Virus record (IMG/VR): IMGVR_UViG_3300013372_005524
Span: 1 to 24,299 of that record
Origin: a virus
Length of the DNA stretch: 24,299 nt
Reading direction: 5' to 3' (one strand)
The notes beneath the pieces are model-generated. The model had not been told where the DNA came from. It searched no databases and worked only from the letters and a program-made list of their open reading frames with translations. The position numbers were made by a program, and so were the translations under genes. Below, one piece after another: positions 8,296-24,299 of the stretch. Each line of letters begins with the position of its first letter. The first letter of the stretch is position 1.

Positions 8296-10098
8296 ATGTC
8301 TACACAAATCACTACCAATTATTTTAGACTGCACAACGTTAAGCAATTTCGTGAGTCTATTAACGAAACAGCCAATAGTGTATATTATGTTTTTGCTGGT
8401 AGGTCTTTGCCCTATTCAGCAGGTGATACAGAAGTGCAAGAAATTACAAACACAGAAGATTCGACGAGCTACAACACACAGGAAAACTTGGTGTTTGGTA
8501 AACGTGTCAGTGCCAATGATGTGTGTGTATCGACAGCTAGAATCAATTGGACTGCAAATACTGTCTATACTCCTTACCGTAATGATGTTGTTTTAGAAGG
8601 CACTTCTTACTATGTGAGCGTAAATGCTGCTTCCGTATATCACATTTTCAAATGTTTAGATAATAATTCGAATGCGGTTTCTACATCAAAGCCCGACGCG
8701 TCTCAAACTGCTCCAAACGACGAATTTTATAGTACAAGCGATGGATATGTTTGGAAATATATGTACTCGGTTGATTCGACTGTTTTTAATAAATTTGCCA
8801 CAATCAACTATATGCCCGTTGTAGCAAATGGACAAGTTGTTGCTAACGCATCGCCAGGATCCATAGACGTTATAACTGTTCCGTTTAGAGGCTCAAATTA
8901 TAACACGACATTGTCAAGCACTTTCATACCCACAGATATACGGGTTGGAGGGAATCCTCTTAAATACAACATAGCAAATACAGCTTCCTCCAACAATCTG
9001 TTTTACCAAGGTAGCTTCATTTACATAACAAAAGGGCCAGGGGTGGGTCAGGGGCGCAAAATCGTTGATTATGTCGTGGTTGGTAATACAAAAACGATTA
9101 CTTTAGATAAGGCTTTCGACACGGTGCCTACAACTGAGACGGAATATGAAATTACCCCTTCTGTATTGATACTGGGTGATGGTGATGATGCGGTGGCTCG
9201 AGCCATTGTCAACACATCAATTTCAAACTCAATATACCAAGTACAAATTATCAACCGAGGTCGTAATTACACGTATGCCACAGCAGAGGTGCAAGGTAAT
9301 ACAGGCGGCGTGTCGAATAGTGCTGTGCTCAATGTTGTAATGGGGCCCAAAGGTGGCCATGGCTCAGACCCCGAATATGAATTAGGAAGTACCGCTCTTG
9401 TTATTAGTAGTAAATTTTCAAACAATGAAATAGGCACAATACCAACAGAGAACGATTTCCGCACCATAGGCTTAATAAAAGATCCGTTGTATGCGAACGT
9501 GGGGCTGACTGTCAGCTCTATTAGTGGTTCGTTTTTAATTGGCGAAAATATCATACAAGCAAACACACTTGCAACGGGTACGGTAACAGAATTTGACGCT
9601 ATTTCCACTGTTGCTATTACTGCTGTGTCGGGGGTGTTTATTGCAGGCAAAACCATTACAGGAGTAACATCTAATTCAACAGCAAATGTTACATCTTTCA
9701 ATATAAACGGAAAATCAAAAGGGTTTGATACGTTTGATCAGCGCGCTCGGTTTGCATTCAGGCAGGTGTCGGGCACACATACACAAGATGAGTTTGTGTA
9801 TCAGACAGCCGCCAATGGGGCTTTCAGTGCAAACGGGTATTTTCACAGCCAAGAAGGCTCGGTTAATGTTAGTTCTGGCCTTTTTGAGGGAAATCTTTAT
9901 TTGACACATATTAAAGGCACCCTAAATACAGGTAATACGCTCGTTGGGAATACAAGTGGCGCTGTAGCGACTTTGTTATTTAAATATCCTCCTGATTTAA
10001 CAAAAGGATCAGGCGAAATAATTTACGTCGAAAATTTAAATTCTGTTACTCGTTCAAATAACCAATCAGAAACAGTAAAAATTATCCTAAAGTTTTAA
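8296..10098 (+). CDS. 8: Baseplate wedge subunit, gp8-like
   Basis: Wedge protein of the upper baseplate periphery, bound to gp7 and gp10 in T4. The N-terminal region follows the T4 gp8 order: 'KQFRESINETANSVYYVFAGRSLPYS' (T4: '...TIFITFGRSEPWS'), then 'VCVSTARINWTANTVYTPYRNDVVL', 'YHIFKCLDNN', and the diagnostic 'DGYVWKYMYSVD' near residue 150 (T4 'DGYVWEYLFEIP'). The last residues, 'GSGEIIYVENLNSVTRSNNQSETVKIILKF', match the T4 ending 'SGEMIYMENRPPI...EEINILFTF'. At 600 residues it is far longer than T4 gp8 (334); the extra length is a central beta-rich insertion (about residues 165-565) with modules such as 'GSFLIGENIIQANTLATGTV'. The ribosome binding site is weak (AAAAAAAGC). The gap to the gp7-like gene is 18 bases. 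Confidence 0.88.
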   Translation: MSTQITTNYFRLHNVKQFRESINETANSVYYVFAGRSLPYSAGDTEVQEITNTEDSTSYNTQENLVFGKRVSANDVCVSTARINWTANTVYTPYRNDVVLEGTSYYVSVNAASVYHIFKCLDNNSNAVSTSKPDASQTAPNDEFYSTSDGYVWKYMYSVDSTVFNKFATINYMPVVANGQVVANASPGSIDVITVPFRGSNYNTTLSSTFIPTDIRVGGNPLKYNIANTASSNNLFYQGSFIYITKGPGVGQGRKIVDYVVVGNTKTITLDKAFDTVPTTETEYEITPSVLILGDGDDAVARAIVNTSISNSIYQVQIINRGRNYTYATAEVQGNTGGVSNSAVLNVVMGPKGGHGSDPEYELGSTALVISSKFSNNEIGTIPTENDFRTIGLIKDPLYANVGLTVSSISGSFLIGENIIQANTLATGTVTEFDAISTVAITAVSGVFIAGKTITGVTSNSTANVTSFNINGKSKGFDTFDQRARFAFRQVSGTHTQDEFVYQTAANGAFSANGYFHSQEGSVNVSSGLFEGNLYLTHIKGTLNTGNTLVGNTSGAVATLLFKYPPDLTKGSGEIIYVENLNSVTRSNNQSETVKIILKF

Positions 10099-10107
10099 GA
10101 GAAAAAG

Positions 10108-13100
10108 ATGCCATTAGAAAATTCTTTAAACCAAAGTCCTTATTTTGACGATTTTACTGTCGACAAAAATTATTATAAAATACTTTTTAAACCTGGGGTT
10201 TCTGTTCAAACGCGGGAACTGAATCAACTTCAAACGTTGTTGCAGAATCAAATTGAGCAGTTTGGCGATCACATTTTCAAAGCAGGCACAATTGTTAGTG
10301 GAGTGAATTTTTCTTATTTGCCTCTCTACAATTATGTTAAGTTGTTGGACACACAAGCTGATGGACAATCAGCTATTCCGTCTGCGTATACAGGGTTTTT
10401 TATAAAAAGCGATTTGGATCTTACTGCTCGAATTGTTAATTTTGAAGACGGCCTCGAATCAAAGTCACCTGATCTTAAAACTATTTTTGTTCAATATGTA
10501 AGCGGTTCTAATCCAGACACAGCTAATAATAATGTGTCGTATACCGAATTTGCTGCTGATCAATCGTTGACTATTTTTAGCAAAGACTATCCCCTTTTCA
10601 AGGTAATAGTAGGAAATGGTGGTACTGGGTTTTCTAACACAGATACTGTCGTGTTCTCTAGTGCACTAACTATTGCAGGCAACACTTCGACATTTGAAGT
10701 TGGAGAGAGAGTCACCCAAGCAGGAACTAATGCACGTGCTATTGTTAAATCCTTAGACACCGCTGCGGTGCCCGGTGCAACGGTTATTAGTATTAAACCA
10801 CTTGTTACCGATCTTCAAAGCTCGAACGCATTGGCGTGGGCGTTTAATGCAGGAAATAATATTGTTGGTAACGTAACTCTATCAACAGCAAACGTTGCTA
10901 GCATTGTTGGCCAAGGTGCCCAAGGATTTTTGACGACTGATTCTCTTGGAATAGTGCAAACCATCAGTCTTTCTAGTAGTGGCAACAATTATACTATTTT
11001 GCCCCACGTGACTATCCAAACATCAAATAACGCAGCAGCAGTGGGAAGTTTAGACATTACCCCCTTCAATTATAAGGCTGTAGTGACAACAGCCAATGCT
11101 GCCGTAAATGCAGTTGGGACTGGTTATGCTTTCGGGGTCTCTAAAGGTGTAATTTATCAAAAAGGATTTTTTCTTCGTGTAGAACCCCAAGTTATTGTTA
11201 TTTCGAAATACACCACAGCTCCCGACAACTTAGCTGTTGGCTTTACATCCACAGAGAAAATTGTCAACGCAAACGAGGATTCAAGTTTGTTCGACAACGC
11301 TGCCAACACGATTAATTATGCAGCACCTGGCGCAGACCGTTTATTATTAACGCCGACTTTGAAAGTACTATCTCTTGATGCAGCCGCTGCAAACAGTGAT
11401 TTTTTTGCTTTAGCAGAATGGAAAGAAGGGTTTCCTTATAAGGAAAATCGCACAACTGCATACAGCACTCTCGGAGACGAATTTGCAAGACGGACAAGAG
11501 AGGCGCAAGGCAATTTCGTTGTCGATCCTTTCCGTGTCGTAACAAAAGATAAAAGTACAGCTAATTTGGATTTTACTCAGGCACTGATTGATCCGGGCCT
11601 TGCGTACATATCAGGGTATAGAGTACAGACGAGTTATAACAATTACCTCGATCTTGCAAGATCCCGGTCTGTCACCGCCCTTTCAAATCAAAGCATTACA
11701 ATCAATTATGGAAATTTTATACGCGTAAAAGAATTAGCTGGTTTGTTTAATTTTAAAGCCGGCGATGTGGTTAATTTTTATGATACAGCTAAACAATTCA
11801 TTACAAGCGTTGTCTCTACTGCAGGCACCATAGCGCCGGCCGGCTCTTCTATAGGTACGGCCAGAATGAGATCTATTATGCTGGACAGTGGCGATCCTGG
11901 GACGCCAGAATGTGTTTATCGTTTGTATCTGTTTGATATTAGTATGAGCGCTGGTAAATCGTTTCGCCAAATTCGTTCGGTTTGGTATGATGGTGGGGTG
12001 CATGATGGTATTGCTGATCTCGTATTGGAGCAAGATGGTACCACAGGGGCAAATGTTGCAGTAATAAAAGACACAAACACCGATGTTATGCTGTTCAAAG
12101 TCGGTAAAAGAGGCGTTGATAGTGTTTCCAATGTCCAATACACATACCGCACCTCAACGCCTTCAACTTTACAAATAACCACTGCAGGCACTATTACAAT
12201 TGGACCATTTGGGTCGGGAACTGTTTTTCCATATTCGGATGGTGTTCTTTCTTCCGTTCTCGAACGAGACTTTATCGTAATGCCAATTGCCAACACAATT
12301 GCAGTAGCAAATATTGCCGGCAGTGTTGTAGTGACAAGCGGATCCGCTTCTGTGACAGGCACCTCTACTGTTTTTCTTACTGCTTTAACACCTGGGGATT
12401 TTATCCGCGTGGCCAACGCAACACACAGCACTGTCGGCCAAGTCAAGTCAATCACGAGTAATACTGCTTTAACTCTTTCGTCTAATGCTACGACAACCGT
12501 CAGTGTTGCCGCCAACGCAGCAATTTTCTTCCCTGCATTATATCCTATACCTTTAGAAAGCCGCTCTGGTCGAACTGTTACCATTTCAGGCTCTGGCTCA
12601 ACAGCAACAATTGATTTGGGGATTGCTTTAACTGCCACTGTCAACGCAATTGCGACGCACAGCGCAAAAAGAAACCCAGCCATTCCTGTTTCCAAAACCC
12701 CAGTGCGGGATATTTTTGTAAAAATACACACAAGCAATAATGCAGCAAATACAATAGGCCCGTGGGGGCTGGGAATTCCTGGTGTGCTTCGTTTGAAAAA
12801 CGTGTTTTCCGGCAGCACAACAGCCAACACAAACATTACAAAATACTTTTCTATTGATGCGGGTGATGATGAGAACGCTTATCGGTTGGCGACACTTGTA
12901 AAAAACCAAGGTGCAGACGTTGATATATCAAACAGTCAATTTCTTCTCGTTCAATTAGATGCCTTCACCACCGGTGGGCAAGAAGGATTTTTTGTTTATA
13001 ACTCCTACAGCGTTAAAGATAGTGTCTCACTTGAAAATCAAACAACGTTTATAAACACACTCGAAATACCTGAAACAGTGACAAATAAAGGTCAATATTT

Positions 13101-14307
13101 CGATATGCGCGACTGTTTTGATTTTAGGCCTTATGGTAGCAACACTGCCACGCTTACAAGTAATGCAGCGCTGGCAACTATAAATCCCTCATTGACGTTT
13201 GCATTGAGTGGAGATGATCAGCTTTTCCCTCAACCTGATTCACTCGTTTCTTATGATGTAAATTATATCAATTCGCGCGTGGATATAGTGTGGGTTGGCA
13301 AGGATGGATCTTTCAATATTAATCAAGGAACTCCTGCTCTTTCAAACCCTGTACAGCCCAAGATTCCTCCGGAAGCAGTGGTTTTAGCAACATTAAACAT
13401 TCCTCCTTATCCTTCATTGCCGGCTGTTTATAATGAGATTACAAGCGCACATGCAGATCGAGGTTTGGGTAATGACCGGGGTGTTTTAAATAGAAGGCTG
13501 TCCAATTTTACAATATCATCGGTCCCTGTTTCTGTATACGATTCCCAACAACCTCGTCGCTTTACTATGGACGAAATTGGTAAATTGCAACGGCGAATTG
13601 AAGCACTCGAGTATGTTGGCTCATTAAACACCATTGAAGGATCTATAAAAGACAAGGTTATTGCAAGTAGCGTAACACCTTCACAGGAAAGATTTAAGCA
13701 TGGTTTTTTTGTTGATCCGTTTGACGATTATAATGGCGTCGACATTGCACATCGCGAGTTTGCGGCATCAATTGATCAGCAAAAAAGCGTACTCACACCG
13801 CCAGTGAAACAAGTAAATTTTGCAATTCAATTTAACAGGGAGCATACAGCGACCAATCAAGGAATTGTGAATGACACACTGCTGATGCTGCCTTACACAG
13901 AAGAGACATTAATTGATCAGTCTATCTTTAGTTCTCCGCTGGGAATTGATGGGATAAAAACGGGGTTTGTTGGTGATCCGAGCATTACACCTGTTTCTTT
14001 TGTGATAAAATCACGTGGTGAAGTAGCCATAACACGTCCTCGCGCCATGGCCGCACTTCCTGCTCCTGCTCCCGTATATGGCAGTCCAGGAGCTGCTCCC
14101 GTATATAACTCACCAGATCAAGGCAGCGGCGGTGATGGTGGCGGTGGCGGTGGTTGGGATGCACCAGCAGCGGCGCCCGACTCTGGAGGCTTTGCGCCAG
14201 ATTCTGGGCCATCTAGTGGTAGTGATAGTGGTGATGGCGGTGGCGGTGGCGGTGGTGATAGTGGCGGTGGTGATAGTGGCGGTGGTGGTGGTGGTGGTCC
14301 ACAGTAA
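10108..14307 (+). CDS. DUF4815-type tail/baseplate structural protein, N-terminal portion, Gly-rich tail
   Basis: Large virion protein of 1399 residues. The start ('SPYFDDFTVDKNYYKILFKPGVSVQTRELNQLQTLLQNQI', residues about 9-50) is the DUF4815 signature: a compact PG-x-x-x-QxRELN-x-LQ motif. The middle has several beta modules, including a T-x-F...GD-x-I-R-V type module at residues about 738-812. Near residues 1150-1180, 'RRFTMDEIGKLQRRIEALEY' resembles the conserved helix of cyanophage homologues. The homologues I recall continue into an Ig-like domain and an 'LAQTF' domain in the same chain; here the chain instead ends in a proline/alanine-rich linker and a Gly/Ser/Asp-rich tail (residues about 1316-1399), and the missing parts are found in the next two genes. 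The exact virion location is not known to me. It starts 9 bases after gp8, behind AAGAGAAAAAG. Confidence 0.8.
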   Translation: MPLENSLNQSPYFDDFTVDKNYYKILFKPGVSVQTRELNQLQTLLQNQIEQFGDHIFKAGTIVSGVNFSYLPLYNYVKLLDTQADGQSAIPSAYTGFFIKSDLDLTARIVNFEDGLESKSPDLKTIFVQYVSGSNPDTANNNVSYTEFAADQSLTIFSKDYPLFKVIVGNGGTGFSNTDTVVFSSALTIAGNTSTFEVGERVTQAGTNARAIVKSLDTAAVPGATVISIKPLVTDLQSSNALAWAFNAGNNIVGNVTLSTANVASIVGQGAQGFLTTDSLGIVQTISLSSSGNNYTILPHVTIQTSNNAAAVGSLDITPFNYKAVVTTANAAVNAVGTGYAFGVSKGVIYQKGFFLRVEPQVIVISKYTTAPDNLAVGFTSTEKIVNANEDSSLFDNAANTINYAAPGADRLLLTPTLKVLSLDAAAANSDFFALAEWKEGFPYKENRTTAYSTLGDEFARRTREAQGNFVVDPFRVVTKDKSTANLDFTQALIDPGLAYISGYRVQTSYNNYLDLARSRSVTALSNQSITINYGNFIRVKELAGLFNFKAGDVVNFYDTAKQFITSVVSTAGTIAPAGSSIGTARMRSIMLDSGDPGTPECVYRLYLFDISMSAGKSFRQIRSVWYDGGVHDGIADLVLEQDGTTGANVAVIKDTNTDVMLFKVGKRGVDSVSNVQYTYRTSTPSTLQITTAGTITIGPFGSGTVFPYSDGVLSSVLERDFIVMPIANTIAVANIAGSVVVTSGSASVTGTSTVFLTALTPGDFIRVANATHSTVGQVKSITSNTALTLSSNATTTVSVAANAAIFFPALYPIPLESRSGRTVTISGSGSTATIDLGIALTATVNAIATHSAKRNPAIPVSKTPVRDIFVKIHTSNNAANTIGPWGLGIPGVLRLKNVFSGSTTANTNITKYFSIDAGDDENAYRLATLVKNQGADVDISNSQFLLVQLDAFTTGGQEGFFVYNSYSVKDSVSLENQTTFINTLEIPETVTNKGQYFDMRDCFDFRPYGSNTATLTSNAALATINPSLTFALSGDDQLFPQPDSLVSYDVNYINSRVDIVWVGKDGSFNINQGTPALSNPVQPKIPPEAVVLATLNIPPYPSLPAVYNEITSAHADRGLGNDRGVLNRRLSNFTISSVPVSVYDSQQPRRFTMDEIGKLQRRIEALEYVGSLNTIEGSIKDKVIASSVTPSQERFKHGFFVDPFDDYNGVDIAHREFAASIDQQKSVLTPPVKQVNFAIQFNREHTATNQGIVNDTLLMLPYTEETLIDQSIFSSPLGIDGIKTGFVGDPSITPVSFVIKSRGEVAITRPRAMAALPAPAPVYGSPGAAPVYNSPDQGSGGDGGGGGGWDAPAAAPDSGGFAPDSGPSSGSDSGDGGGGGGGDSGGGDSGGGGGGGPQ
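14052..14304 (+). repeat. Low-complexity Gly/Ser/Asp-coding tract (GGT/GGC)
   Basis: Codes for the C-terminal tail of the DUF4815-type protein. A proline/alanine-rich stretch with two copies of a VYGSPG/VYNSPD-like unit is followed by runs of 5-7 glycines separated by DS, made of GGT and GGC codons. The purine/T-rich triplet run is prone to slippage, and its resemblance to 14788-14880 could allow deletion of the gene between them. Confidence 0.85.
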
Positions 14308-14332
14308 CAGCAAAATAACAAAAAGGTAGCGC

Positions 14333-14884
14333 ATGGTAACGTCTCAGCCCAAAATTGTTTTTATAGTAGAAGAACAGGTTTTTAGAATTAAGGCAGTAGG
14401 ACTAATGCCGCTCACATATCATAGTTTTTATGTTGAGCGTCAAAAAGTCAATTTTTCAAATTTAAAGCAGGTAGGTGGTTTAAGAAACACAACTCTTCAA
14501 ACTGACGCAAACGGGCAAATAGAGTTTGATTATTTTTATAACTCTGGTCTAACAGGTGATGAAACAACATTGGAGCAGGCACAGCAAGCAACAAATATGG
14601 TTGCTGGAATCAAAGAAGTTATTCTTGCTACCTCAACTAGTAGCACTCTTCCTCTAAATTATGCGCAAACAATGCTTTCCCATTTTCGTACACATATTGG
14701 CATTGAAGTTGTTTTGCCTCCACCATCTGATTATGCACAAATAGATGGTGGGTATTATGATCCCCAAAGCACTGTTTTATCTGATTCGGGTGGAGGTATG
14801 GACGGTGGCAGGGATGGTGATGGTGGCGGCGGTGGGGGCGGTGGGGGCGGTGGCGGTATTGGCAGCGGTAGCGGATATCAATAA
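14333..14884 (+). CDS. Structural protein resembling the middle (Ig-like) domain of cyanophage DUF4815 proteins
   Basis: A protein of 183 residues. The core 'VFRIKAVGLMPLTYHSFYVERQKV...VGGLRNTTLQTDANGQIEFDYFY' follows the pattern 'GL.P.T..Y.F.DG.....L.TDA.G.I...F' that I recall from the middle domain of long DUF4815-type tail proteins. Residues about 150-183 are a tail of aspartate, glycine and serine with a run of 12 glycines, much like that of the preceding gene. A good ribosome binding site (AAGGTAG, 14323-14329) sits 3 bases before the ATG; 25 bases separate it from the upstream stop. It is probably a virion component working with its neighbours. The domain assignment is by pattern only. 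Confidence 0.6.
   Translation: MVTSQPKIVFIVEEQVFRIKAVGLMPLTYHSFYVERQKVNFSNLKQVGGLRNTTLQTDANGQIEFDYFYNSGLTGDETTLEQAQQATNMVAGIKEVILATSTSSTLPLNYAQTMLSHFRTHIGIEVVLPPPSDYAQIDGGYYDPQSTVLSDSGGGMDGGRDGDGGGGGGGGGGGGIGSGSGYQ
14788..14880 (+). repeat. Second Gly-rich coding tract
   Basis: GGT/GGC/GGG codons giving GGGMDGGRDGDG followed by a run of 12 glycines and then GIGSGSGYQ. It repeats the composition of 14127-14304 at the end of the preceding gene. Confidence 0.85.
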
Positions 14885-14921
14885 CAGAAAAATGTAATGG
14901 CAACAATTTTTAGGAAAAAAA

Positions 14922-16961
14922 ATGATCGGTTTTGATTTAGCACAAACGTTTTATATGGATGCGGATGCTGTAAGAGGGGCAGAAAAGGTATTCGTTACGT
15001 CTGTCGATCTGTACTTGTATAGTAAGCCTGTAGCGGGTAAAACCAAATCTGGTATTAACGCGCCCGGCATCTCTGTGTACATTGGAGCATGCCAAGAAAA
15101 TAATGTGCCTGACGTCTCATCAATAAATCAAAGGTTTGGGGCGCGGGTCGAGTATGCTGATTTAAATTCAAATTCATCAGGACTATCTGCTACGACTTTT
15201 ACTTTTAAATCACCAGTGCCGCTGGCTACCAACCTTTCTTATGCACTTCTGATAAAATTTGATGGCAGCGATACTGATTTCAAAATATGGCACAACAGAG
15301 CAGGTGAAAATGTTTTTGGGTCAGAAACCTTAACGAATGTCTCTTCTGGTAGAATTGATGGGTCTTTGTTTGTTATAACCAATGGGGTCAACTTGACGCC
15401 TGAACGTGACGCTGATCTTGCGTTTAAACTTAAAATTGCTAAATTTGATACAACACCAACCTTATACAAATTTAAAAACAAACCTTTAGAACTTTTAAAA
15501 ATTAAAAATTTGAATGGATCTTTTATCGGGGGTGAAGAGGTTTTTCAAGTTACCGCAGCTGCAACAGGAACATTAAACGTTTCTGCTGGTAACGTTTTTA
15601 TTACTGGCACAGGGACGAGCTTTAACACATATTTAGCCGCTGGCATGAAATTTGTTATTCAAGGAAATACGGTACAGGGTAATACTGTAGCTGTGGTTAA
15701 CGCCATAACAAATTCGACCTTTATGTCGATAGCCACGGCGTTACCGTTCACTAATACAGCAACCTTCTTTTATAGACCTGTAATTGGTACTGTCAATAAC
15801 ACAGACGGTCTAACCGATCACCTTTTTATTGCAAATTCAACCGCAAATAGCACATTGTATTTGGCAAACAATAACGGCATAATTGGTATTGAGTCAGGCG
15901 CCACGGCGAACATAGCTGTCGGCGGTGTGCTGACTCAAACCGTCAACGCACTAATTCCTAGTTTCAAATTGTACACACCTCCCGGTACAAGCATTTCTTC
16001 TTCGGTAACTGTTGCTGATAGTGCAGGAAGCATTGACACCACAAGAACTGTGAGTGTCGAAATGGGTAAACGTTATGTGTTTAATAATTACAATGCCTCG
16101 TTTGCTTCCAGAACACTCGAAACGTCCGCAGCGTTGCCATTCAATTCAATAGAAGGTGCTTTCACGTTCCAAACAACTAATCCTTATAGCACACCATATG
16201 TACGTGAAGAGAATTTAGATATGTTTGGTGAAAAATTCGAAATTAACAATCTTTCCGATAATGAATATTTAGGTAAAGGCAATTCAAAAGCGCGTTACAT
16301 ATCTAAAACAGTTACTTTGGGAGCTGGTCTACAAGCTGAAGACTTGAAGGTGTTTATTAGAGCGCATAGACCGTCTGGCACAACTATACAGGTGTATGCT
16401 AAAATTATTAACCCCAATGACAACGAAGCAATTAGTTTAAAAGATTGGACAGAGCTTGTTAATAGAAATTCGACCACGTTCAATAGTGCAAGCGTTATAA
16501 CCGATCGAAGCGAATTTGAATATGCGTTTCCTGCCTATAACGCTGGCACCGAACAAAGCGGTGCATTCACGACATCGAACGGTAGTGCTGTCATAACAGG
16601 AACAAGTGGTGTTGTTAATACCGGAATAACGACAGGGGACGTTGTGAGAGTGTTTTCGCCGTTGTTTGGTGATACGTGGGCTATTGATAGCGTTACAGGT
16701 GCCAACACAACAACGATCACACTTGCGAACCCAATATCTAATTCAAGCATCGTGGGTACAGGGTTTAAGGTTTCAAAGATAACAAAACCGTCTTGTGCGT
16801 TTATCGATGTTCAAAACAGCAATGTCGCAACATATTTCTCTTCTTCCAGAGCAAGGCATGCAACGTTTTCTTCTTTCAGTATAAAAATAGTGCTTCTGTC
16901 AGAAGATGGTATAAAAATACCATATGTCGATGACCTTCGTACTGTCGCGGTGTCAGCATGA
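14922..16961 (+). CDS. Tail structural protein resembling the C-terminal part of cyanophage DUF4815 proteins
   Basis: A 679-residue protein. It opens directly with 'GFDLAQTFYMDADA...VFVTSVDLYLYSK', the start of the domain that follows the Ig-like part in the long cyanophage tail proteins I recall, and continues with 'GISVYIGACQ...TTFTFKSPVPLATNLSYALLIKF' and the 'IDGSLFVITNGVNLTPERDADLAFKLKIAKF' pattern. Residues about 216-288 and 547-620 carry two copies of a beta module ('ITGTGTSFNTYLAAGMKFVI') also present in the first gene of the trio. Near residues 465-510, 'AEDLKVFIRAHRPSGTTIQVYAKI...LKDWTEL' is another recognised stretch. TAGGA (14911-14915) lies 6 bases before the ATG. The 37-base gap to the upstream gene holds no other feature I can see. 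It overlaps the next gene by ATGA. Confidence 0.75.
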   Translation: MIGFDLAQTFYMDADAVRGAEKVFVTSVDLYLYSKPVAGKTKSGINAPGISVYIGACQENNVPDVSSINQRFGARVEYADLNSNSSGLSATTFTFKSPVPLATNLSYALLIKFDGSDTDFKIWHNRAGENVFGSETLTNVSSGRIDGSLFVITNGVNLTPERDADLAFKLKIAKFDTTPTLYKFKNKPLELLKIKNLNGSFIGGEEVFQVTAAATGTLNVSAGNVFITGTGTSFNTYLAAGMKFVIQGNTVQGNTVAVVNAITNSTFMSIATALPFTNTATFFYRPVIGTVNNTDGLTDHLFIANSTANSTLYLANNNGIIGIESGATANIAVGGVLTQTVNALIPSFKLYTPPGTSISSSVTVADSAGSIDTTRTVSVEMGKRYVFNNYNASFASRTLETSAALPFNSIEGAFTFQTTNPYSTPYVREENLDMFGEKFEINNLSDNEYLGKGNSKARYISKTVTLGAGLQAEDLKVFIRAHRPSGTTIQVYAKIINPNDNEAISLKDWTELVNRNSTTFNSASVITDRSEFEYAFPAYNAGTEQSGAFTTSNGSAVITGTSGVVNTGITTGDVVRVFSPLFGDTWAIDSVTGANTTTITLANPISNSSIVGTGFKVSKITKPSCAFIDVQNSNVATYFSSSRARHATFSSFSIKIVLLSEDGIKIPYVDDLRTVAVSA

Positions 16962-17191: not shown

Positions 17192-19388
17192 AAATATAGC
17201 AAACGTTGTTATTGCAACAGATTCTTTTGCAACGTGGGTTAGTGTTACAAATCAAACAGCGGACGCATTCACAAAAAATGCGCTTACCGCTAACGCGGCT
17301 CCTGGAGGGGCAGTCGTAACTGGCAATTCTCATTTGTTTGGTATTTTTGCGGCAAACACAATTGTAGCTAATAACTCATTACGCGGCGGTAATGTATCCC
17401 ACTCAAATCTTCTAACAATATCATCAAATACTAATTTTACGGGCGAGGTAGTAAATTCAGCAGCAAACGTTTACATAGGGGCTGCCAACGTTTACATAAA
17501 CACGACTAGTTTCGTCGTGTTGGGTGTTTCCACTCTAACAGGTAATGCGACCTTCAAAATAAACGCAACAAATACAAACATCCAGCTTCTTGGCAATGCA
17601 ACAGCAAGCAATCTGACGTTTTCAGCAAATGCTGTAAGCATTGTGGGAAACGTGTCAATCACCAATGCAACAAGTGTGGCCAACACTGTTGCTGTTACGG
17701 GAGCTGCAACTCTATCAAACACAATAGCCGTTACCGGGAATGCAACTTTCTCCAATGTAATGCTTGTTACTGGAGCCGCAACTCTATCAAACACAATAGC
17801 CGTTATCGGGAATGCAACCTTCTCCAATACAATGGCTGTTACTGGAGCCGCAACTTTCTCCAATACGATTGCTGTTACAAATAATGCAACGTTCTCCAAT
17901 ACAATGGCTGTTACTGGAGCCGCAACTTTCTCCAACACGATTGCTGTTACAAATAATGCAACGTTCTCCAATACAATGGCTGTTACTGGAGCCGCAACTT
18001 TCTCCAATACGATTGCTGTTACAGGAAATGCAACTTTCTCTAACACATTAGGTGTTACTGGAGCCGCAACTTTCTCGAACACAGTGGCTGTTACGAATAA
18101 TGCAACCTTTTCTAACACAATAGCTGTTACTGGAGCTGCAAATTTAGCAAGCACGTTGGGTGTTGTTGGCGCTGCAAATTTAGCAAGCACGTTGGGTGTT
18201 ACTGGAGCTGCAAATCTTGCTAGCACATTGGGTGTTACTGGAGCTGCAAATCTTGCTAGCACATTGGGTGTTGTTGGAGCGGCAACATTATCTAACACAA
18301 TAGCTGTTACAGGTAATGCAACTTTCTCCAATACAATAGCTGTTACAGGTAATGCAACTTTCTCTAACACAATAGCTGTTACAGGAGCTGCAAATCTTGC
18401 TAGCACATTAGGTGTTATTGGAGCCGCAACATTATCAAACACAATAGCTGTTACAGGAGCCGCAAATTTAGCAAGCACATTAGGTGTTGTTGGAGCGGCA
18501 ACATTATCTAACACAATAGCCGTTACAGGAGCCGCAAATCTTGCTAGTACATTGGGTGTGCTTGGCAATGTGTGGGTCACATCGACAATAGCCACCTTTA
18601 ATAGTAATACTGGTGTAGCTAATACAACCGATTTCATAACATCGACGTCAGCTCATGGGTTTGCAAATGGTGAGTATGTACAGTATATCGTATCAGCAGG
18701 AAATACAGCTGTTACGGGGCTTGTTAATGCTAGTTTTTATTATGTTGTTGGAGCAAACGCGACCGCCTTCCAATTAGCATCAACCGTGGATGGTGCAAAC
18801 ATAAATATAACTGCTGGTCTTACGCAAACAGGACACTCATTACAACCTATACGCATTGCATTGTCTACGAGTGGTAAGATTTTTGCTAATACAATAGCTG
18901 TTACAGGAGCCGCAACTCTTTCTAGCACATTAGGCGTTGGCGGTAATGTGACGTTCAGTGGGACACATCATCTTATTGCTGGAAATGTTACATTCGATAC
19001 TGATTTGTTATTTCTGGATGCAACCAACAACAGAATAGGGTTAAAGAATAATTCTCCTTCCTCGGTAGATCTCGTCACAGTTGGTGGCAACGTTGTTTTC
19101 AACGCTGCAAACACTACAGGGTTGCGGTTTATTACAGCTACAGCAGGCGTTAATTCTTCTATTGTTCTAATGGCAAATACGTCGAATAGCAGATTGACGT
19201 TTGCAACCTATGACAACTCAAACACAACTGTAAACGATGGTGGTTTCTTGTTTAATTTTGTTAACTCAACAGCGACAACAGCAGGTGTATTGCTTACCTC
19301 AAACACTTTTCATTATAAAGGAGCTAATGTGACCCACGCTGGTAATTTTGGCATTTATAACGTAAGTGGCACTCGAGTAGGTCCATGA
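17184..19388 (+). CDS. Fibre-like structural protein built of 12-residue repeats
   Basis: A 734-residue protein. The N-terminus 'NVVIATDSFATWVSVTNQTADAFTKNALTANAAPGGAVVTGN' and 'HLFGIFAANTIVANNSLRGGNVSHSN' are of a kind I recall at the start of fibre-like virion proteins of marine phages, probably the attachment end. Residues about 172-471 are some 25 tandem 12-mers of the type TGAATFSNTIAV. The array is interrupted by the shared 80-residue module (residues about 474-556), after which the repeat pattern resumes briefly ('FANTIAVTGAATLSSTLGV'). The C-terminal ~140 residues ('NNRIGLKNNSPSSVDLVTVGGNVVF...') are unique and probably form the tip. No C-terminal intramolecular chaperone (peptidase S74) is seen. 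It starts inside the preceding gene, after GATGGAAAA. The repeats suggest a beta-solenoid or trimeric beta shaft. Confidence 0.82.
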   Translation: MAKNIANVVIATDSFATWVSVTNQTADAFTKNALTANAAPGGAVVTGNSHLFGIFAANTIVANNSLRGGNVSHSNLLTISSNTNFTGEVVNSAANVYIGAANVYINTTSFVVLGVSTLTGNATFKINATNTNIQLLGNATASNLTFSANAVSIVGNVSITNATSVANTVAVTGAATLSNTIAVTGNATFSNVMLVTGAATLSNTIAVIGNATFSNTMAVTGAATFSNTIAVTNNATFSNTMAVTGAATFSNTIAVTNNATFSNTMAVTGAATFSNTIAVTGNATFSNTLGVTGAATFSNTVAVTNNATFSNTIAVTGAANLASTLGVVGAANLASTLGVTGAANLASTLGVTGAANLASTLGVVGAATLSNTIAVTGNATFSNTIAVTGNATFSNTIAVTGAANLASTLGVIGAATLSNTIAVTGAANLASTLGVVGAATLSNTIAVTGAANLASTLGVLGNVWVTSTIATFNSNTGVANTTDFITSTSAHGFANGEYVQYIVSAGNTAVTGLVNASFYYVVGANATAFQLASTVDGANINITAGLTQTGHSLQPIRIALSTSGKIFANTIAVTGAATLSSTLGVGGNVTFSGTHHLIAGNVTFDTDLLFLDATNNRIGLKNNSPSSVDLVTVGGNVVFNAANTTGLRFITATAGVNSSIVLMANTSNSRLTFATYDNSNTTVNDGGFLFNFVNSTATTAGVLLTSNTFHYKGANVTHAGNFGIYNVSGTRVGP
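17697..18596 (+). repeat. Array of about 25 tandem 36-bp (12-residue) units
   Basis: Three unit types alternate: TGAATFSNTIAV, TGNATFSNTMAV or TNNATFSNTMAV, and TGAANLASTLGV. The first half mixes the first two types as 24-residue pairs. Units 13-16 are four consecutive ANLAS types, and the second half alternates NLAS with ATLSN. Runs of almost identical DNA show recent local duplication and gene conversion. Degenerate units lie upstream from about 17530. Confidence 0.93.
18603..18852 (+). repeat. 80-residue shared module, copy 3 (in 12-mer fibre protein)
   Basis: Encodes about residues 474-556: 'GVANTTDFITSTSAHGFANG', 'EYVQYIVSAGNTAVTGL', 'FYYVVGANATAFQLAS' and 'TQTGHSLQPI'. It lies between repeat units of the array, as if inserted there. 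Confidence 0.8.
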
Positions 19389-19389
19389 A

Positions 19390-22300
19390 ATGGGGAGACC
19401 TCTTCGCGCGCGGTATTTAACTGCTGGGTTCAATTCTTTAAGTGGTGTTTCAAACACGACGGAGTATATAACTACCACTTCGCCTCATGTTATTTCAAAT
19501 GGTGATGTTGTTACGTATGTCACAGCAACAGGTAACACTGCTATACCAGGCCTTGCAAACGCTTCAAGCTACTATGCTGTAAATGCCAATACAACCGCTC
19601 TACAGTTATCATTGACTCTGGGCGGCGCAGCAATAAACATAACAGCTGGTACATCTGAAACCGGCCACAGTTTGTATAGAGGCGCCATTGATGGTGTCCA
19701 GGAAATGACGGATACGGAAATTAATGATCTAATAGCACCATTAATTCTTTCTTACATAGTTAACAATCCCAATACATCATATGGCACATCTTTACGATTA
19801 ACACAAGGCGCCTATGGAGTCAGCAGGGGTACAGCTGTACGTTCCGGAACACAAGCTGTCGGCACACATCCAGCCACGTTGTCGTCTCTTGCTTCTTACA
19901 CATTATATCAAACAGAATTACAGCAATCCCTCACAACACTGAATGTGGTCCGACCAGTTCAATACACTATTAGTGGTCAGGAAACAAAAATATCAGAAAT
20001 GTCTGATAGTACCATTCTATCTGACTTCATTCCTTCTGTCGTGCAAACCATGATAACTGGTGGGCAAGGTGCATACTATCTTGGCCTCACTGCTTCTGGA
20101 TCGCCGGCCGGCACCTGGTCATCATATGCAACAATGGATGACACCTATTATAACAGTAGTGGTGTTTTTACGACAGATCAATATACGTTGTGGCAAAAAG
20201 CATCGGGCACAACCGCTGGCATAATACGACCTTTGAAATATGTTGTTGATGGCACCTCTGTTCAACTGAAAGAGATGACCAATGCAGATATAGAGACGTT
20301 GGCTGCTGCTATAGGTGAATATATTAGAACAACGTCAATAGGTCAGTACGCTTTTGCACAGAATGCCCCTGGTGCAGGCACATGGAGCTCTCGTGGAGCT
20401 TTTATTACACAAGCCAACAATTTAGTTGACACAGCATATGTTGGTAATTATGCTGACACGTATACAGGCGTTTATGCAGGCACATATGTCGGGGCATTTA
20501 GCGCTCCTTATGCAGGCACATATGTCGGGGCATTTAGCGCTCCTTATGCAGGCACATATGTCGGGGCATTTAGCGCTCCTTATGCTGGTACATATGTCGG
20601 AGCGTTTACAAGCATATATGCCGGTACATATGTTGGAGCGTTTACAAGCATATATGCTGGTGGTTATATAGGGTATTTTACTGGCTCTTATACAGGTTTA
20701 TATTCACGTAATTGGACCGGTAGTTATACTGGATCCTATTCCCGCGACTGGACGGGCAGCTATACTGGACTCTATTCCCGTAATTGGACAGGCGATTATT
20801 CGAGACCCTATGTAGGATCTTATGATGGTAGTTTTGCAGGTACATATGTTGGATCCTATGCAGGCACTTACGAGCATCCAACAGGATATGCAAGTAATTG
20901 GTCAAGACCCTATGTTGGATCAAGAGACTCAGGAACATTTCAGCAAATTGTTAGCAAATATTTTTCCAGAGGCCCCTATGTTCGCAGTTTCACCCACTCA
21001 TTTACTGGCGCCTATTCAAGAGAACGTGGTGTAGTATATTCTGGTGAGCGTGGTAAATATTACAACGTCAGTTATGCGGGCGTCTACACACAAAACGTGG
21101 GGACGTTAGTGTACACGTCGACGTGGACGCGTCATTATTCTGGTAGTTATTCACGAATTTTTACCGGCTCCTATACAAAAGAATGGACAGGCCCCCATTC
21201 TTATTCAGGCTCACGTACTAAAAATTTATCAAGTTACACCGGGGCAACTTTTACACCATCCTTTCTTGGTCCCGGATATTACAGTCCGGGCGATGGTCAA
21301 TATGGCATTAACTGGACGCGTATTCGCGATGTGGCTTATACGGGAACATATGTCGGATCGTATGCGGGAACGTATCAACGTACAATATATTATGGAGGTG
21401 TATTGACCGCCCACCCGGAATATTATACAGGCCTCTCCAACGACCGCACTTTTTATGGTGGCAAGCAGCTCACGTCTGTCTTTAGCGGTTCTTACTTCAC
21501 GGGAAGCTATGTAACGTCAACAGAAAAATCTTATACACAAGGATATACGGGGCTGTATACAGGAGGCCCCTACACTGGTGCTAACCAGCTTTGGACAACA
21601 ACTGCGCTGAGCGGGTATGGAGGCAACACAACAACATATACCTGGTTTGGCGGAAACAGACTTAACAATCAGACCGCAATTTTAAAATATGTTGTCGGTC
21701 TGCCGTTAACTGCTGCTCAACAGCTTTTCATAGATTTAGCACGTACTTTTCAATATGTTGGGGTTGAGGGCCCACTTGCCCCTCCTGGCCGACGATATGG
21801 TAACATTAAACAAGGTCAAGCCAATGGTGGAGATATTACCACTTCGGATTCCACTATATTTGGTGCCATATCTGTCTATGACAGAAACTCAGGCTTTTTC
21901 TCTACAGGTGAATTGTTTCGGCTCGATTTGTTTCTCGAATACGTTAGAGCGCAATCGCAGGGGTCTATAGACACGCTCGTCGGTGCGGGGCTGCTCACTG
22001 CCACGGTTACAGCATCAACATCACAATGGACAGCTACGTATACAATAGATTCAGGAACGTATGCCGGCAGCTACTCAGGTGAAAAGGTTTTCACTGGTAA
22101 TTGGTCTCGTGAAAAAGCAGTTTCCTTTACAGGCGATGCTCCTGGTTATGCACAAACCTATCAATTGGGTTATACAGCCAATTTATGGACTGGATCGCGT
22201 ACAAAATCTTGGCTTCGCTATTATGCTGGCACATACACAGCAGTTTATACAGGAATATACGGCGCTTACACAAGTGCTGGTGGGTTATATTACACACCTA

Positions 22301-22920
22301 TTACAGCGCTGGGGCAGGGGTCTTATGCCACAGCCTACATTGGGTATTATGTGGGTGTAATCAGTTACAACGTATTAAAGCAATATGCTAACTTTTGGTC
22401 ACGCACATATGCTGGTTCATATGTGGGGTACTATACAAAAGAGTATTCACGCCCATATTCAGGATCATATTCACGCAATTGGACAGGTAGTTATTCAGGC
22501 ACTTATTCACGCGATTGGACAGGCATCTATGCAGGAACATATGTCGGATCGTATGCAGGAAATTTTGCAGGAACATATGTCGGATCGTATGCAGGGGCCT
22601 ATGCAGGAACATATGTCGGATCGTATGCAGGCGCTTATCTAGGTGCCTTTAATCAAACTTTCTCTGGCAACTACACAGGAATATATTCACGTAATTTCAC
22701 AGGTAGTTATACAGGGATATATTCGCGCAATTTCACAGGTAGTTATACAGGGATATATTCGCGCAATTTCACAGGTAGTTATACAGGGATATATTCGCGC
22801 AATTTCACAGGTAGTTATACAGGAGCTTACACACACATATGGACGGGTAGCTATTCTGGTTTGACTGTTATAAATACAACAGCATCCACACAATTTACGT
22901 TGTGGGTAAGAACAGCATAA
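19390..22920 (+). CDS. Large fibre-like protein with EM-type modules and two YTG-repeat blocks
   Basis: A 1176-residue protein. Residues about 12-98 are the shared 80-residue module. Three related modules follow, starting near residues 103, 201 and 293, each with an EM(S/T)(D/N)xxI motif, a helix-like stretch, a G-x-Y segment and usually GTWSS. The rest is YTG repeat: residues about 350-731 and 880-1157. The two blocks are separated by a non-repetitive part (about 732-879, with 'PPGRRYGNIKQGQANGG' and 'GELFRLDLFLEYVRA') of unknown fold. Some repeat units read YSRNWTGS or YSRDWTGS, adding Arg and Trp. It begins one base after the previous stop, with only a weak site (GAGTAGG, 19375-19381). I do not recognise a named family. 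Location in the tail cluster and repeat design suggest an extended virion protein, possibly a host-contacting fibre. Confidence 0.82.
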   Translation: MGRPLRARYLTAGFNSLSGVSNTTEYITTTSPHVISNGDVVTYVTATGNTAIPGLANASSYYAVNANTTALQLSLTLGGAAINITAGTSETGHSLYRGAIDGVQEMTDTEINDLIAPLILSYIVNNPNTSYGTSLRLTQGAYGVSRGTAVRSGTQAVGTHPATLSSLASYTLYQTELQQSLTTLNVVRPVQYTISGQETKISEMSDSTILSDFIPSVVQTMITGGQGAYYLGLTASGSPAGTWSSYATMDDTYYNSSGVFTTDQYTLWQKASGTTAGIIRPLKYVVDGTSVQLKEMTNADIETLAAAIGEYIRTTSIGQYAFAQNAPGAGTWSSRGAFITQANNLVDTAYVGNYADTYTGVYAGTYVGAFSAPYAGTYVGAFSAPYAGTYVGAFSAPYAGTYVGAFTSIYAGTYVGAFTSIYAGGYIGYFTGSYTGLYSRNWTGSYTGSYSRDWTGSYTGLYSRNWTGDYSRPYVGSYDGSFAGTYVGSYAGTYEHPTGYASNWSRPYVGSRDSGTFQQIVSKYFSRGPYVRSFTHSFTGAYSRERGVVYSGERGKYYNVSYAGVYTQNVGTLVYTSTWTRHYSGSYSRIFTGSYTKEWTGPHSYSGSRTKNLSSYTGATFTPSFLGPGYYSPGDGQYGINWTRIRDVAYTGTYVGSYAGTYQRTIYYGGVLTAHPEYYTGLSNDRTFYGGKQLTSVFSGSYFTGSYVTSTEKSYTQGYTGLYTGGPYTGANQLWTTTALSGYGGNTTTYTWFGGNRLNNQTAILKYVVGLPLTAAQQLFIDLARTFQYVGVEGPLAPPGRRYGNIKQGQANGGDITTSDSTIFGAISVYDRNSGFFSTGELFRLDLFLEYVRAQSQGSIDTLVGAGLLTATVTASTSQWTATYTIDSGTYAGSYSGEKVFTGNWSREKAVSFTGDAPGYAQTYQLGYTANLWTGSRTKSWLRYYAGTYTAVYTGIYGAYTSAGGLYYTPITALGQGSYATAYIGYYVGVISYNVLKQYANFWSRTYAGSYVGYYTKEYSRPYSGSYSRNWTGSYSGTYSRDWTGIYAGTYVGSYAGNFAGTYVGSYAGAYAGTYVGSYAGAYLGAFNQTFSGNYTGIYSRNFTGSYTGIYSRNFTGSYTGIYSRNFTGSYTGIYSRNFTGSYTGAYTHIWTGSYSGLTVINTTASTQFTLWVRTA
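19423..19680 (+). repeat. 80-residue shared module, copy 4 (N-terminus of YTG fibre protein)
   Basis: Encodes about residues 12-97: 'SGVSNTTEYITTTSPHVISN', 'DVVTYVTATGNTAIPGLANA', 'SYYAVNANTTALQLSL' and 'SETGHSLYRG'. Here the module is N-terminal, while in the other two proteins it is internal. Confidence 0.8.
19696..20436 (+). repeat. Three EM-type modules in tandem
   Basis: Modules begin at about 19696, 19990 and 20266 (294 and 276 bases apart). Each encodes E-M-[ST]-[DN]-x-x-I, a predicted helix of about 20 residues and then a G-x-Y segment. The second and third carry GTWSS, and a 'VVRPVQY' or 'IIRPLKY' strand precedes them. Three further copies lie in the next gene. Confidence 0.75.
20437..21582 (+). 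repeat. YTG tetrapeptide-repeat block 1
   Basis: Residues about 350-731. Its first part, 20473-20652, consists of 36-bp units: three perfect copies of the unit encoding YAGTYVGAFSAP (20473-20508, 20509-20544, 20545-20580), then two YAGTYVGAFTSI units. Later units take the form YTGSYSRDWTGS. From about 20890 the array is interrupted by irregular stretches but keeps returning to the four-residue rhythm. Confidence 0.9.
22027..22860 (+). repeat. YTG tetrapeptide-repeat block 2
   Basis: Residues about 880-1157, less regular at about 22280-22380. It includes three 36-bp copies around 22528-22642 (YAGTYVGSYAGx) and a run at 22672-22815: one diverged unit followed by three perfect 36-bp units (22708-22743, 22744-22779, 22780-22815) encoding YTGIYSRNFTGS. 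The perfect copies point to recent expansion. Confidence 0.9.
22869..22876 (+). promoter_or_regulatory. Possible T4-type late promoter (TATAAATA)
   Basis: An exact match to the T4 late promoter consensus TATAAATA lies 57 bases upstream of the last gene's ATG, inside the final codons of the preceding gene. In an AT-rich 24-kb window about one match would be expected by chance, and there is a second one inside the hub gene. The position is right for an extra late start of the final fibre-like gene, but there is no other support. Confidence 0.3.
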
Positions 22921-22933
22921 GACAAACGCCCCC

Positions 22934-24299
22934 ATGCCTTCAATTGCACCTTTAAAACCTCTTCATTCAATTGTTTCCTTGCAAACAATGTCGAATAACG
23001 ACATGGATGATTATATGTCATTCATTCTCGCATCTGATTTTGCTGCGACAGTAGGCGTTGGTTCATTGGGTGTTAATTCTTTAGCAAATGGCACAAGCAT
23101 AGGCACGTGGGTTGACACATATCGAACAGGTGCTTTGGGCGATTACCCTGTTGATAATACAGCAATAACAACAACAAGCACCACGATATATCAAAACATA
23201 TCCAATGGTGCTCTGACAGGATCACCAGTAAGACCTCTTGGCTGGAATACTAATATTTTATCACTTGATATTAGTGGTGCACAAGAGATGACCGATGCAG
23301 ACATAGACGCAACCATTATAGCAAAAACAGCTGCGTATATTGTCAATGGTGGTGTCGGGTCTTATGTTCTTCAACCGTCTGCACCAGCCACGGGCACATG
23401 GACTTCGAAAGGCACATTAACAAATCAATTAAATTCTGAAGGCACAACTAATGTAACCACCTTGTGGCAAAAAACAAACGACACAGTTTTAGACAACAGT
23501 TATGTAGTGCGGCCGGTCAAATTTGATAATGGCGTACGTGAAATGACGGATGCAGAAATTAAAACTCTGACGTTTAGACTTCGTAATTACATTGTTAACC
23601 AGGGTGTTGGAAAATATGCGTTGTCCATTAATTCACCATCATCAGGAGGCACTTGGGTCACAGCAGGGTCGGGTTTTGTCGATACGAGATATTCTGTAAG
23701 ACCGGACACCTATACCCGAATTCGCGATCAATCCTTTACAGGAGGGTTTGCTACTACTTACACGGGATCGTACACAGGTCAGTTTACTGGTAGTTTTCTA
23801 AATGACTTTACAGCAACATATACGGGATCTTATGTTGGGGGATATACACAAGATTACACAGGTAGTTATGTTAACTTTGGTGGTTATGCGGGGTTTTTTA
23901 CCGGCGTATATGCTGGAACATATAACCAAACATTTACCGGCCTTTTTACGGGGCAATATTCTGGCCATTGGTCAGGAGAGTTTTCTGGTAATTACATAGG
24001 AACATTTACAGGCGCATTTACCGGTAGTTATGTTAACTTTGGTGGTTATGCGGGGTTTTTTACCGGCGTATATGCTGGAACATACAATCAGGCATTCACC
24101 GGTGCATTCTCAAGCATATACAATCAGGCATTTACAGGGATATATGCAGGTACATATAACCAAGCATTCACCGGCGCATTCTCAAGCATATACAATCAGG
24201 CATTTACTGGGATATATGCAGGAACATATAACCAAGCATTTACCGGCGCATTCTCAAGCATATACAATCAGGCATTTACTGGGATATATGCCGGCACAT
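22934..24299 (+). CDS. Fibre-like protein with EM-type modules and YTG repeats, paralogue of the preceding gene (3' end outside window)
   Basis: An open frame runs from ATG 22934 to the window edge with no stop: 455 full codons. An in-frame stop at 22907-22909 limits the start, and ATG 22934 is the first start codon after it; no clear ribosome binding site precedes it. Three EM-type modules start near 22982 ('LQTMSNNDMDDYM', diverged), 23282 ('AQEMTDADIDATI') and 23540 ('REMTDAEIKTLTF'); each ends in GTW or GGTWV. From 23735 it becomes YTG repeat. The design matches the preceding gene minus its N-terminal 80-residue module, so the two are probably tandem paralogues. The exact end and any C-terminal tip are outside the window. 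Function unknown; likely a virion fibre. Confidence 0.8.
   Translation, partial: MPSIAPLKPLHSIVSLQTMSNNDMDDYMSFILASDFAATVGVGSLGVNSLANGTSIGTWVDTYRTGALGDYPVDNTAITTTSTTIYQNISNGALTGSPVRPLGWNTNILSLDISGAQEMTDADIDATIIAKTAAYIVNGGVGSYVLQPSAPATGTWTSKGTLTNQLNSEGTTNVTTLWQKTNDTVLDNSYVVRPVKFDNGVREMTDAEIKTLTFRLRNYIVNQGVGKYALSINSPSSGGTWVTAGSGFVDTRYSVRPDTYTRIRDQSFTGGFATTYTGSYTGQFTGSFLNDFTATYTGSYVGGYTQDYTGSYVNFGGYAGFFTGVYAGTYNQTFTGLFTGQYSGHWSGEFSGNYIGTFTGAFTGSYVNFGGYAGFFTGVYAGTYNQAFTGAFSSIYNQAFTGIYAGTYNQAFTGAFSSIYNQAFTGIYAGTYNQAFTGAFSSIYNQAFTGIYAGT
22982..23700 (+). repeat. Three EM-type modules in the last gene
   Basis: Modules start near 22982, 23282 and 23540. The second and third have the full EMTDA[DE]I motif, followed by 'AAYIVNGGVGSYVL' or 'RNYIVNQGVGKYAL' and a GTW/GGTW strand. 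The first has M-S-N-N-D-M and 'IGTWVDTY'. They correspond to 19696-20436 in the preceding gene. Confidence 0.75.
23735..24299 (+). repeat. YTG tetrapeptide-repeat block of the last gene (continues beyond window)
   Basis: Starts with FTGGFATTYTGSYTG. It contains a direct duplication (23861-23922 and 24023-24084) and ends in three 72-bp units: 24083-24154, 24155-24226 and 24227-24298. Each unit encodes six tetrads, YNQA FTGA FSSI YNQA FTGI YAGT. The window ends one base into the next unit. Confidence 0.92.
23861..24084 (+). repeat. 62-bp perfect direct repeat, 162 bp apart
   Basis: Bases 23861-23922 are identical to 24023-24084 (encoding GSYVNFGGYAGFFTGVYAGT). The 162-base offset is 54 codons, so the frame is kept. 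This unit breaks the four-residue rhythm with a Y-x-N-F-G-G-Y step, so both the rhythm break and the perfect identity mark a recent in-frame duplication. Confidence 0.93.

What the first reader, a model, noticed from the sequence alone, without database searches (positions are those of the whole stretch)
10108..16961. A normally single long tail protein appears split into three genes, two with glycine-rich tails
The DUF4815-like gene, the small Ig-like gene and the 'LAQTF' gene look like N-terminal, middle and C-terminal parts of one long cyanophage tail protein as I recall it. The breaks fall at domain borders and each piece has its own start codon and ribosome binding site, so this is not simple decay. 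Both upstream pieces end in Gly/Ser/Asp tails of similar composition, which could be flexible tethers or low-complexity contacts that keep the parts together.
Basis: partly seen in the sequence, partly recalled or inferred. Interest (0 to 1): 0.65.

Follow-up and report, generated by a model that had tools for sequence, protein, structure and literature searches.

The report
Phage baseplate protein in three genes
A large phage tail-tip protein that is one chain in most relatives is encoded here by three separate genes, an old and repeatedly evolved arrangement; the glycine-rich ends of two pieces sit where relatives attach interchangeable extra domains, some of them of a self-cutting type.

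Summary
Confirmed: window 10108-14307 (N, 1399 aa), 14333-14884 (M, 183 aa) and 14922-16961 (C, 679 aa) are, in order, the three parts of the VrlC/DUF4815 baseplate protein. All three map collinearly onto one solved chain (PDB 9euf, 1152 aa) and onto single-gene homologues; N-M-C order holds in 134 of 134 loci. It is not decay or sequencing error: the window's whole 21-member clade has both breaks, M has dN/dS 0.04-0.16, and the two borders changed state at least 8 and 11 times on the family tree. The tether idea is weakly supported. Gly runs mark 14 of 94 broken borders and 1 of 174 intact ones, but not significantly once relatedness is controlled. In relatives the Gly run usually leads to a swappable C-terminal module: a Hint (intein-like) domain, an undescribed helical domain seen on either N or M, or other cargo. 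The window's tails look like such linkers without a module. In four unsplit relatives a Hint domain lies inside the chain and its His-Asn end is 3 residues before LAQTF, where the window's C gene starts, suggesting protein-level cutting at the same border. That step, and any tail function, is inferred.

The parts
10108..14307 (+). N piece of the split VrlC/DUF4815 baseplate protein (1399 aa)
   Evidence: Pfam DUF4815 1e-50; PHROG_358 6e-177; aligns to residues 6-600 of PDB 9euf chain
14110..14304 (+). Gly/Ser/Asp-rich C-terminal tail of the N piece (residues 1335-1399); includes an imperfect 15-bp tandem repeat at 14246-14298
   Evidence: sequence; tandem repeat; at the same place relatives carry Gly linker plus Hint, CT or other Cys-started modules
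14320..14327 (+). Shine-Dalgarno-like AAAAAGGT before the middle gene
   Evidence: read from sequence; not tested
14333..14884 (+). Middle piece M (183 aa): conserved domain 14333-14749 plus tail
   Evidence: iterated profile finds M in all unsplit homologues; profile matches 9euf residues 681-786, E 3.9e-8; dN/dS 0.04-0.16 in near relatives; AlphaFold pLDDT 85
14747..14881 (+). Gly/Ser/Asp-rich C-terminal tail of M (residues 139-183)
   Evidence: absent from L011-L015 M genes, which end at 140 aa; replaced by a Gly run plus helical module in L112 and L052
14910..14915 (+). Shine-Dalgarno-like TTAGGA before the C gene
   Evidence: read from sequence; not tested
14922..16961 (+). C piece (679 aa), begins MIGFD-LAQTF
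   Evidence: PHROG_358 positions 1424-1648, 2e-37; profile matches 9euf residues 805-950, E 7e-16; 42-50% identity to C pieces of the nearest relatives

Best explanation
The window encodes a three-gene form of the VrlC/DUF4815 baseplate protein of T4-like phages. The single chain of most relatives has three modules in fixed order: N (next to gp8 in the operon), M (a small beta-rich domain) and C (starting at [LIV]AQTF). Gene fission at the N/M and M/C borders turned them into three separately translated chains, which presumably assemble at the baseplate by the same domain contacts that the fused chain uses. Fission leaves N and M with free C-termini. In this family those ends are a fast-changing slot where a Gly/Pro-rich linker carries a swappable C-terminal module: a Hint domain, a helical module, a Cys-started module and others. 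In the window both linkers are present without a module, either because a module was lost or because the Gly-rich tail itself is the current occupant. Shown: homology, order, conservation of the split, module turnover. Inferred: direction of change (fission rather than fusion), three chains in the virion, non-covalent assembly, exposure of the tails.
For: Collinear mapping of all three pieces on one solved chain and on single-gene homologues such as phiM12 (1802 aa), OC (1942 aa), HTVC008M (2001 aa). N-M-C order in 134/134 loci; 68 unsplit, 28 with both breaks, 38 with one. Window in a 21-member clade, all with both breaks. M under purifying selection as a gene of its own. Modules at the same ends: Hint in L011, L013-L015, L006, L051, L073, L079, L122-L124, L128; the helical CT module on the N piece of L031, L038, L106, L116, L146 and on the M piece of L052 and L112; a Cys-started module followed by a cytochrome P450 gene in L012.
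Against: No protein data for any split member. Most split homologues have neither Gly run nor recognised module. No relic of a Hint or other module remains in the 25- and 37-base gaps of the window. Gly/break association is not significant after control for relatedness. The tree counts changes but cannot tell fission from fusion.
Confidence: 0.7

Rival explanations
1. Separation of the chain is itself the selected trait, reached by two routes: gene fission, and post-translational cutting by an embedded type A bacterial intein-like (BIL) Hint domain at the M/C border. The window's Gly tails are scars of Gly linkers that once led to such Hint domains.
For: In unsplit L137, L141, L143 and L151 Hint domains sit exactly between M and C (Pfam Hom_end_hint 46-125 bits in L137, L143 and L151, cutoff 32), with Cys1, TxDH-type block and a final HN-(K/R)-DP-LAQTF; the last Asn lies 3 residues before LAQTF, the window's C gene starts 5 residues before it. 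L143 has three tandem Hints. Split L006, L073, L079 keep a Gly run plus Hint at the end of the N+M gene. [quoted passage not shown]
Against: Only about 5 of 68 unsplit chains hold a Hint; BILs can also splice, which would restore one chain; no cleavage was shown; the window holds no Hint sequence.
Confidence: 0.3
2. The Gly-rich tails are functional low-complexity contacts: flexible tethers that keep N, M and C together, or Gly-rich receptor-binding tips like the Gly-rich adhesins of T-even phages (the latter resemblance is from memory).
For: The two tails of the window resemble each other; own-genome N and M tails are slightly more alike than shuffled pairs (p 0.036, 25 genomes). Gly runs occur at 14 of 94 broken versus 1 of 174 intact borders.
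Against: Near relatives with the same three genes lack Gly tails on M altogether (L011-L015); Gly content of the two tails does not correlate across genomes (rho 0.20, p 0.33); relatives use the position for linker plus domain.
Confidence: 0.25
3. The breaks are decay or sequencing errors and the products are not separately functional.
For: A few loci show frame breaks in this region (L013 and L163 inside Hint; L024 inside C), so errors or decay do occur in the data.
Against: Same borders in 21 clade members from different metagenomes, own start codons, low dN/dS for M, intact C genes.
Confidence: 0.02

Closest known systems
VrlC / DUF4815 baseplate protein of T4-like and cyano-/pelagimyophages (PHROG_358; e.g. 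phiM12, OC, HTVC008M)
   Same: Same domains in the same order, same place after gp8 and before a small ORF
   Different: One gene of 1800-2500 aa there; three genes here, with Gly-rich ends on N and M
PDB 9euf chain 'DUF4815 domain-containing protein, ORF65' (1152 aa, 15 entries; from memory probably a Staphylococcus kayvirus baseplate, not checked)
   Same: All three pieces align to it collinearly (N 6-600, M 681-786, C 805-950)
   Different: Single shorter chain, remote sequence similarity
Caulobacter phage Cr30 gene pair (1201 + 787 aa) and Stenotrophomonas phage DLP_6 gene pair (1824 + 555 aa)
   Same: Cultured phages with the same protein split in two: N | M+C in Cr30, N+M | C in DLP_6
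   Different: Only one border broken in each; DLP_6 carries a Gly run and a Hint-like domain at the end of its first gene
Type A bacterial intein-like (BIL) Hint domains
   Same: Cys1, TxxH-type block, final His-Asn without a following Cys/Ser/Thr in Hints inside unsplit relatives
   Different: Not present in the window; activity untested
Two-protein L-shaped tail fibres of T5-like DT57C (LtfA/LtfB in place of T5 Ltf, PMC4728585 abstract)
   Same: A fibre protein that is one chain in a relative is encoded by two genes
   Different: Different protein family and virion position

Membership tests
VrlC/DUF4815 baseplate protein | DUF4815 domain in the N part | tested here: met
   Pfam PF16075 1e-50, 173 bits, cutoff 30
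VrlC/DUF4815 baseplate protein | N, M and C modules in this order | tested here: met
   order in 134/134 loci; collinear on PDB 9euf
VrlC/DUF4815 baseplate protein | Gene follows a gp8-type wedge gene in the baseplate operon | tested here: met
   gp8 Pfam PF09215 6e-10 in 8296-10098; same order in isolates
VrlC/DUF4815 baseplate protein | Encoded as a single chain (usual, but not kept by the whole family) | tested here: not met
   three ORFs; also not met anywhere in its 50-member clade, so I do not count it as defining
VrlC/DUF4815 baseplate protein | Present in the virion baseplate | not testable with these tools
   no proteomics or structure of this phage
Type A BIL (Hint) domain, for unsplit relatives L137/L141/L143/L151 | Hint fold with Cys1, TxxH, final His-Asn, no nucleophile after it | tested here: met
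   Pfam Hint families above cutoff in L137, L143, L151; CFI/CFV start, TSDH or TNDH, HN followed by K or R
Type A BIL (Hint) domain | Autocleavage or splicing activity | not testable with these tools
   sequence only
Type A BIL (Hint) domain | Present in the window itself | tested here: not met
   Hint profile finds no window ORF on the + strand
Immunoglobulin-like domain (M piece) | Significant fold match to an Ig-like structure | tested here: inconclusive
   AlphaFold model pLDDT 85 with beta strands and one helix; best PDB fold matches E 0.09 or worse, Ig-type folds among them

The most novel reading that the evidence does not exclude
In this baseplate family the long chain is meant to be parted at its domain borders: some lineages part it in the genome, others let an embedded self-cleaving Hint domain part it after translation, at the same residue border; the freed ends on Gly-rich linkers then act as a display slot for exchangeable modules on the phage baseplate.
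Probability: 0.3. Interest if true: 0.75.

Novelty: new variant of a known kind. Interest (0 to 1): 0.55.

Why it matters
It indicates that the covalent continuity of a conserved baseplate protein of T4-like phages is dispensable, and it marks two borders at which the chain is repeatedly cut and exchangeable C-terminal modules are hung. If the embedded Hint domains cut at the same border, gene fission and protein self-cleavage would be two routes to one assembly state, which a simple expression test can decide.

Tried and rejected
Single-sequence searches with M found nothing in phages or Pfam; profiles were needed. A single-sequence locus scan with C found no relatives; the alignment scan did. 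Sequencing error or decay was rejected because the borders recur clade-wide. A split intein joining the pieces was considered and not supported: no Hint sequence in the window and the gaps are 25 and 37 bases. A relatedness-controlled test of Gly tails against breaks had too few independent pairs to be significant. Correlation of Gly content of the two tails across genomes was absent. Fold searches with M and with the helical CT module gave no significant PDB match; CT matched only other phage proteins, among them a DUF4815 protein. No paper on PDB 9euf, on a split VrlC or on Hint domains in VrlC was found in the held library. Family-library hits for the L012 Cys-started module were not significant; its resemblance to the CFI-box C-terminal domain is from memory only.

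Full report
What is there. The window is a 24.3-kb viral record from the baseplate operon of a T4-like myophage: 8296-10098 matches Pfam gp8 and is followed by N 10108-14307 (1399 aa), M 14333-14884 (183 aa) and C 14922-16961 (679 aa), each with ATG and a plausible ribosome binding site. N is DUF4815/VrlC (Pfam 1e-50, PHROG_358 positions 165-1081); C matches positions 1424-1648 of the same PHROG profile.

One protein in three genes. In the phage collection, homologues are single genes of 1802 (phiM12), 1942 (OC), 1922 (RHph_I1_18), 2001 (HTVC008M), 2045 (Mosig) and 2127 aa (Melnitz); the closest isolate, Cr30, has two genes (1201 + 787 aa) and DLP_6 another pair (1824 + 555 aa). M has no match alone, but a profile of M genes from near relatives, iterated, finds M in all unsplit homologues. 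A 46-member M profile matches residues 681-786 of PDB chain 9euf (E 3.9e-8), between the N match (6-600) and the C match (805-950, E 7e-16). So the three window proteins are collinear with one experimentally solved chain. Caution: the M profile was iterated on loci of this family, so its E-values on those loci are not independent; the PDB match is independent of that set.

Conservation. IMG/VR scans and isolates gave 164 distinct loci. In 134 with N end, M and C recognisable, the order is N-M-C in all. Borders: both intact 68, both broken 28, only M/C broken 20, only N/M broken 18. On a FastTree of 131 rows the N/M border changed state at least 8 times and M/C at least 11; the window lies in a 21-row clade (support 99) with both breaks throughout, inside a 50-row clade with no unsplit member. 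The tree cannot tell fission from fusion. For near relatives, dN/dS of M is 0.04-0.16 (one near-identical pair 0), of N and C 0.03-0.11 (synonymous sites are partly saturated). The three genes therefore evolve as functional units; decay and sequencing error are excluded as the general cause.

The tails. A Gly run (7 of 10 residues) stands at 6 of 46 broken and 0 of 88 intact N/M borders, and at 8 of 48 broken and 1 of 86 intact M/C borders. Fisher tests on the 131 tree rows give p 0.0015 and 0.0014, but independent pairs on the tree are too few for significance. In near relatives the M gene ends at 140 aa without any tail (L011-L015). What follows the Gly run in relatives is usually a module: Hint domains at the end of N (L011, L013-L015, L051, L122-L124, L128; the linker of L011 and L015 is only weakly Gly-rich) or of N+M (L006, L073, L079); a helical module (CT) at the end of N (L031, L038, L106, L116, L146) or of M (L052, L112); a Cys-started module in L012, followed by a cytochrome P450 ORF. 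The same CT module on either N or M shows that both free ends are used as equivalent slots. CT is all-helical in prediction (pLDDT 84), has no PDB match, and occurs on an unrelated protein of cyanophage SynMITS9220M01 after Gly, Pro and Arg runs. The window's two tails are thus best read as linkers without a module; they are alike in composition, and own-genome pairs are slightly more alike than shuffled ones (p 0.036), though Gly content does not correlate across genomes.

Hint domains at the M/C border of unsplit relatives. L137, L141, L143 and L151 carry one to three Hint domains between M and C, ending HN-(K/R)-DP-LAQTF, with Pfam Hint-type scores above cutoff in L137, L143 and L151. The final Asn is 3 residues before LAQTF; the window's C gene begins 5 residues before it. 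Cys1, TxDH, HN and no following nucleophile are the features of type A BIL domains, for which cleavage products dominate over splicing (PMC4031507). This suggests, but does not show, protein-level parting at the border where the window parts the gene.

Mechanism. Most likely, N sits at the baseplate wedge beside gp8, M and C dock on it through contacts that the unsplit chain also uses, and the free ends of N and M carry variable extensions. The literature at hand calls VrlC an integral component of two-layered baseplates (PMC7029224) and reports carbohydrate-binding-like folds in the C part of related Bacillus phage VrlC proteins (PMC11406892), which fits a host-facing role of the C part; this is inference for the window.

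Verdict. The Gly-tether reading is possible but not favoured. No description of a split VrlC was found in the held library, which lacks most subscription journals. Rated a new variant of a known kind.

Noticed in passing
L012 12457-13725: A cytochrome P450 ORF (Pfam PF00067 2.5e-21, with FGGGERGCPG heme motif) lies between the N and M genes of a near relative, directly after a Cys-started C-terminal module.
   Followed up: partly
L013 9886-10428, L014 12781-13284: An extra ORF between N and M; the L013 copy matches PHROG_1128 (4e-24) with a weak hint of a permuted papain-like enzyme.
   Followed up: partly
L143 ORF 2283-10196 residues 1432-1894; L137 ORF 1-6486 residues 1135-1421: Three and two tandem Hint domains joined HN-K-C inside an otherwise unsplit VrlC chain.
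   Followed up: partly
L013 9471-9522, L163 4798-4801: Reading frame breaks inside the Hint domain, real or from assembly.
   Followed up: no
L152 13106-16686: Three or four consecutive downstream genes each carry a Hint-like domain, two of them after collagen-like GPP repeats.
   Followed up: no
L180 4669-6519 (SynMITS9220M01): The undescribed helical CT module follows Gly-rich, poly-Pro and poly-Arg runs on a cyanophage protein next to a fibre gene.
   Followed up: partly
L119, L121, L125 N pieces: About 1000 extra residues at the end of the N piece, apparently repeated domains, not identified.
   Followed up: no
window 17680-18546: Coding 36/144-bp tandem repeats in the 734-aa fibre-like ORF, with a long mirror ORF on the other strand (17492-18637).
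   Followed up: no
window 20459-20793, 22520-22854, 23861-24299: 36-bp tandem repeats in the large downstream ORFs.
   Followed up: no
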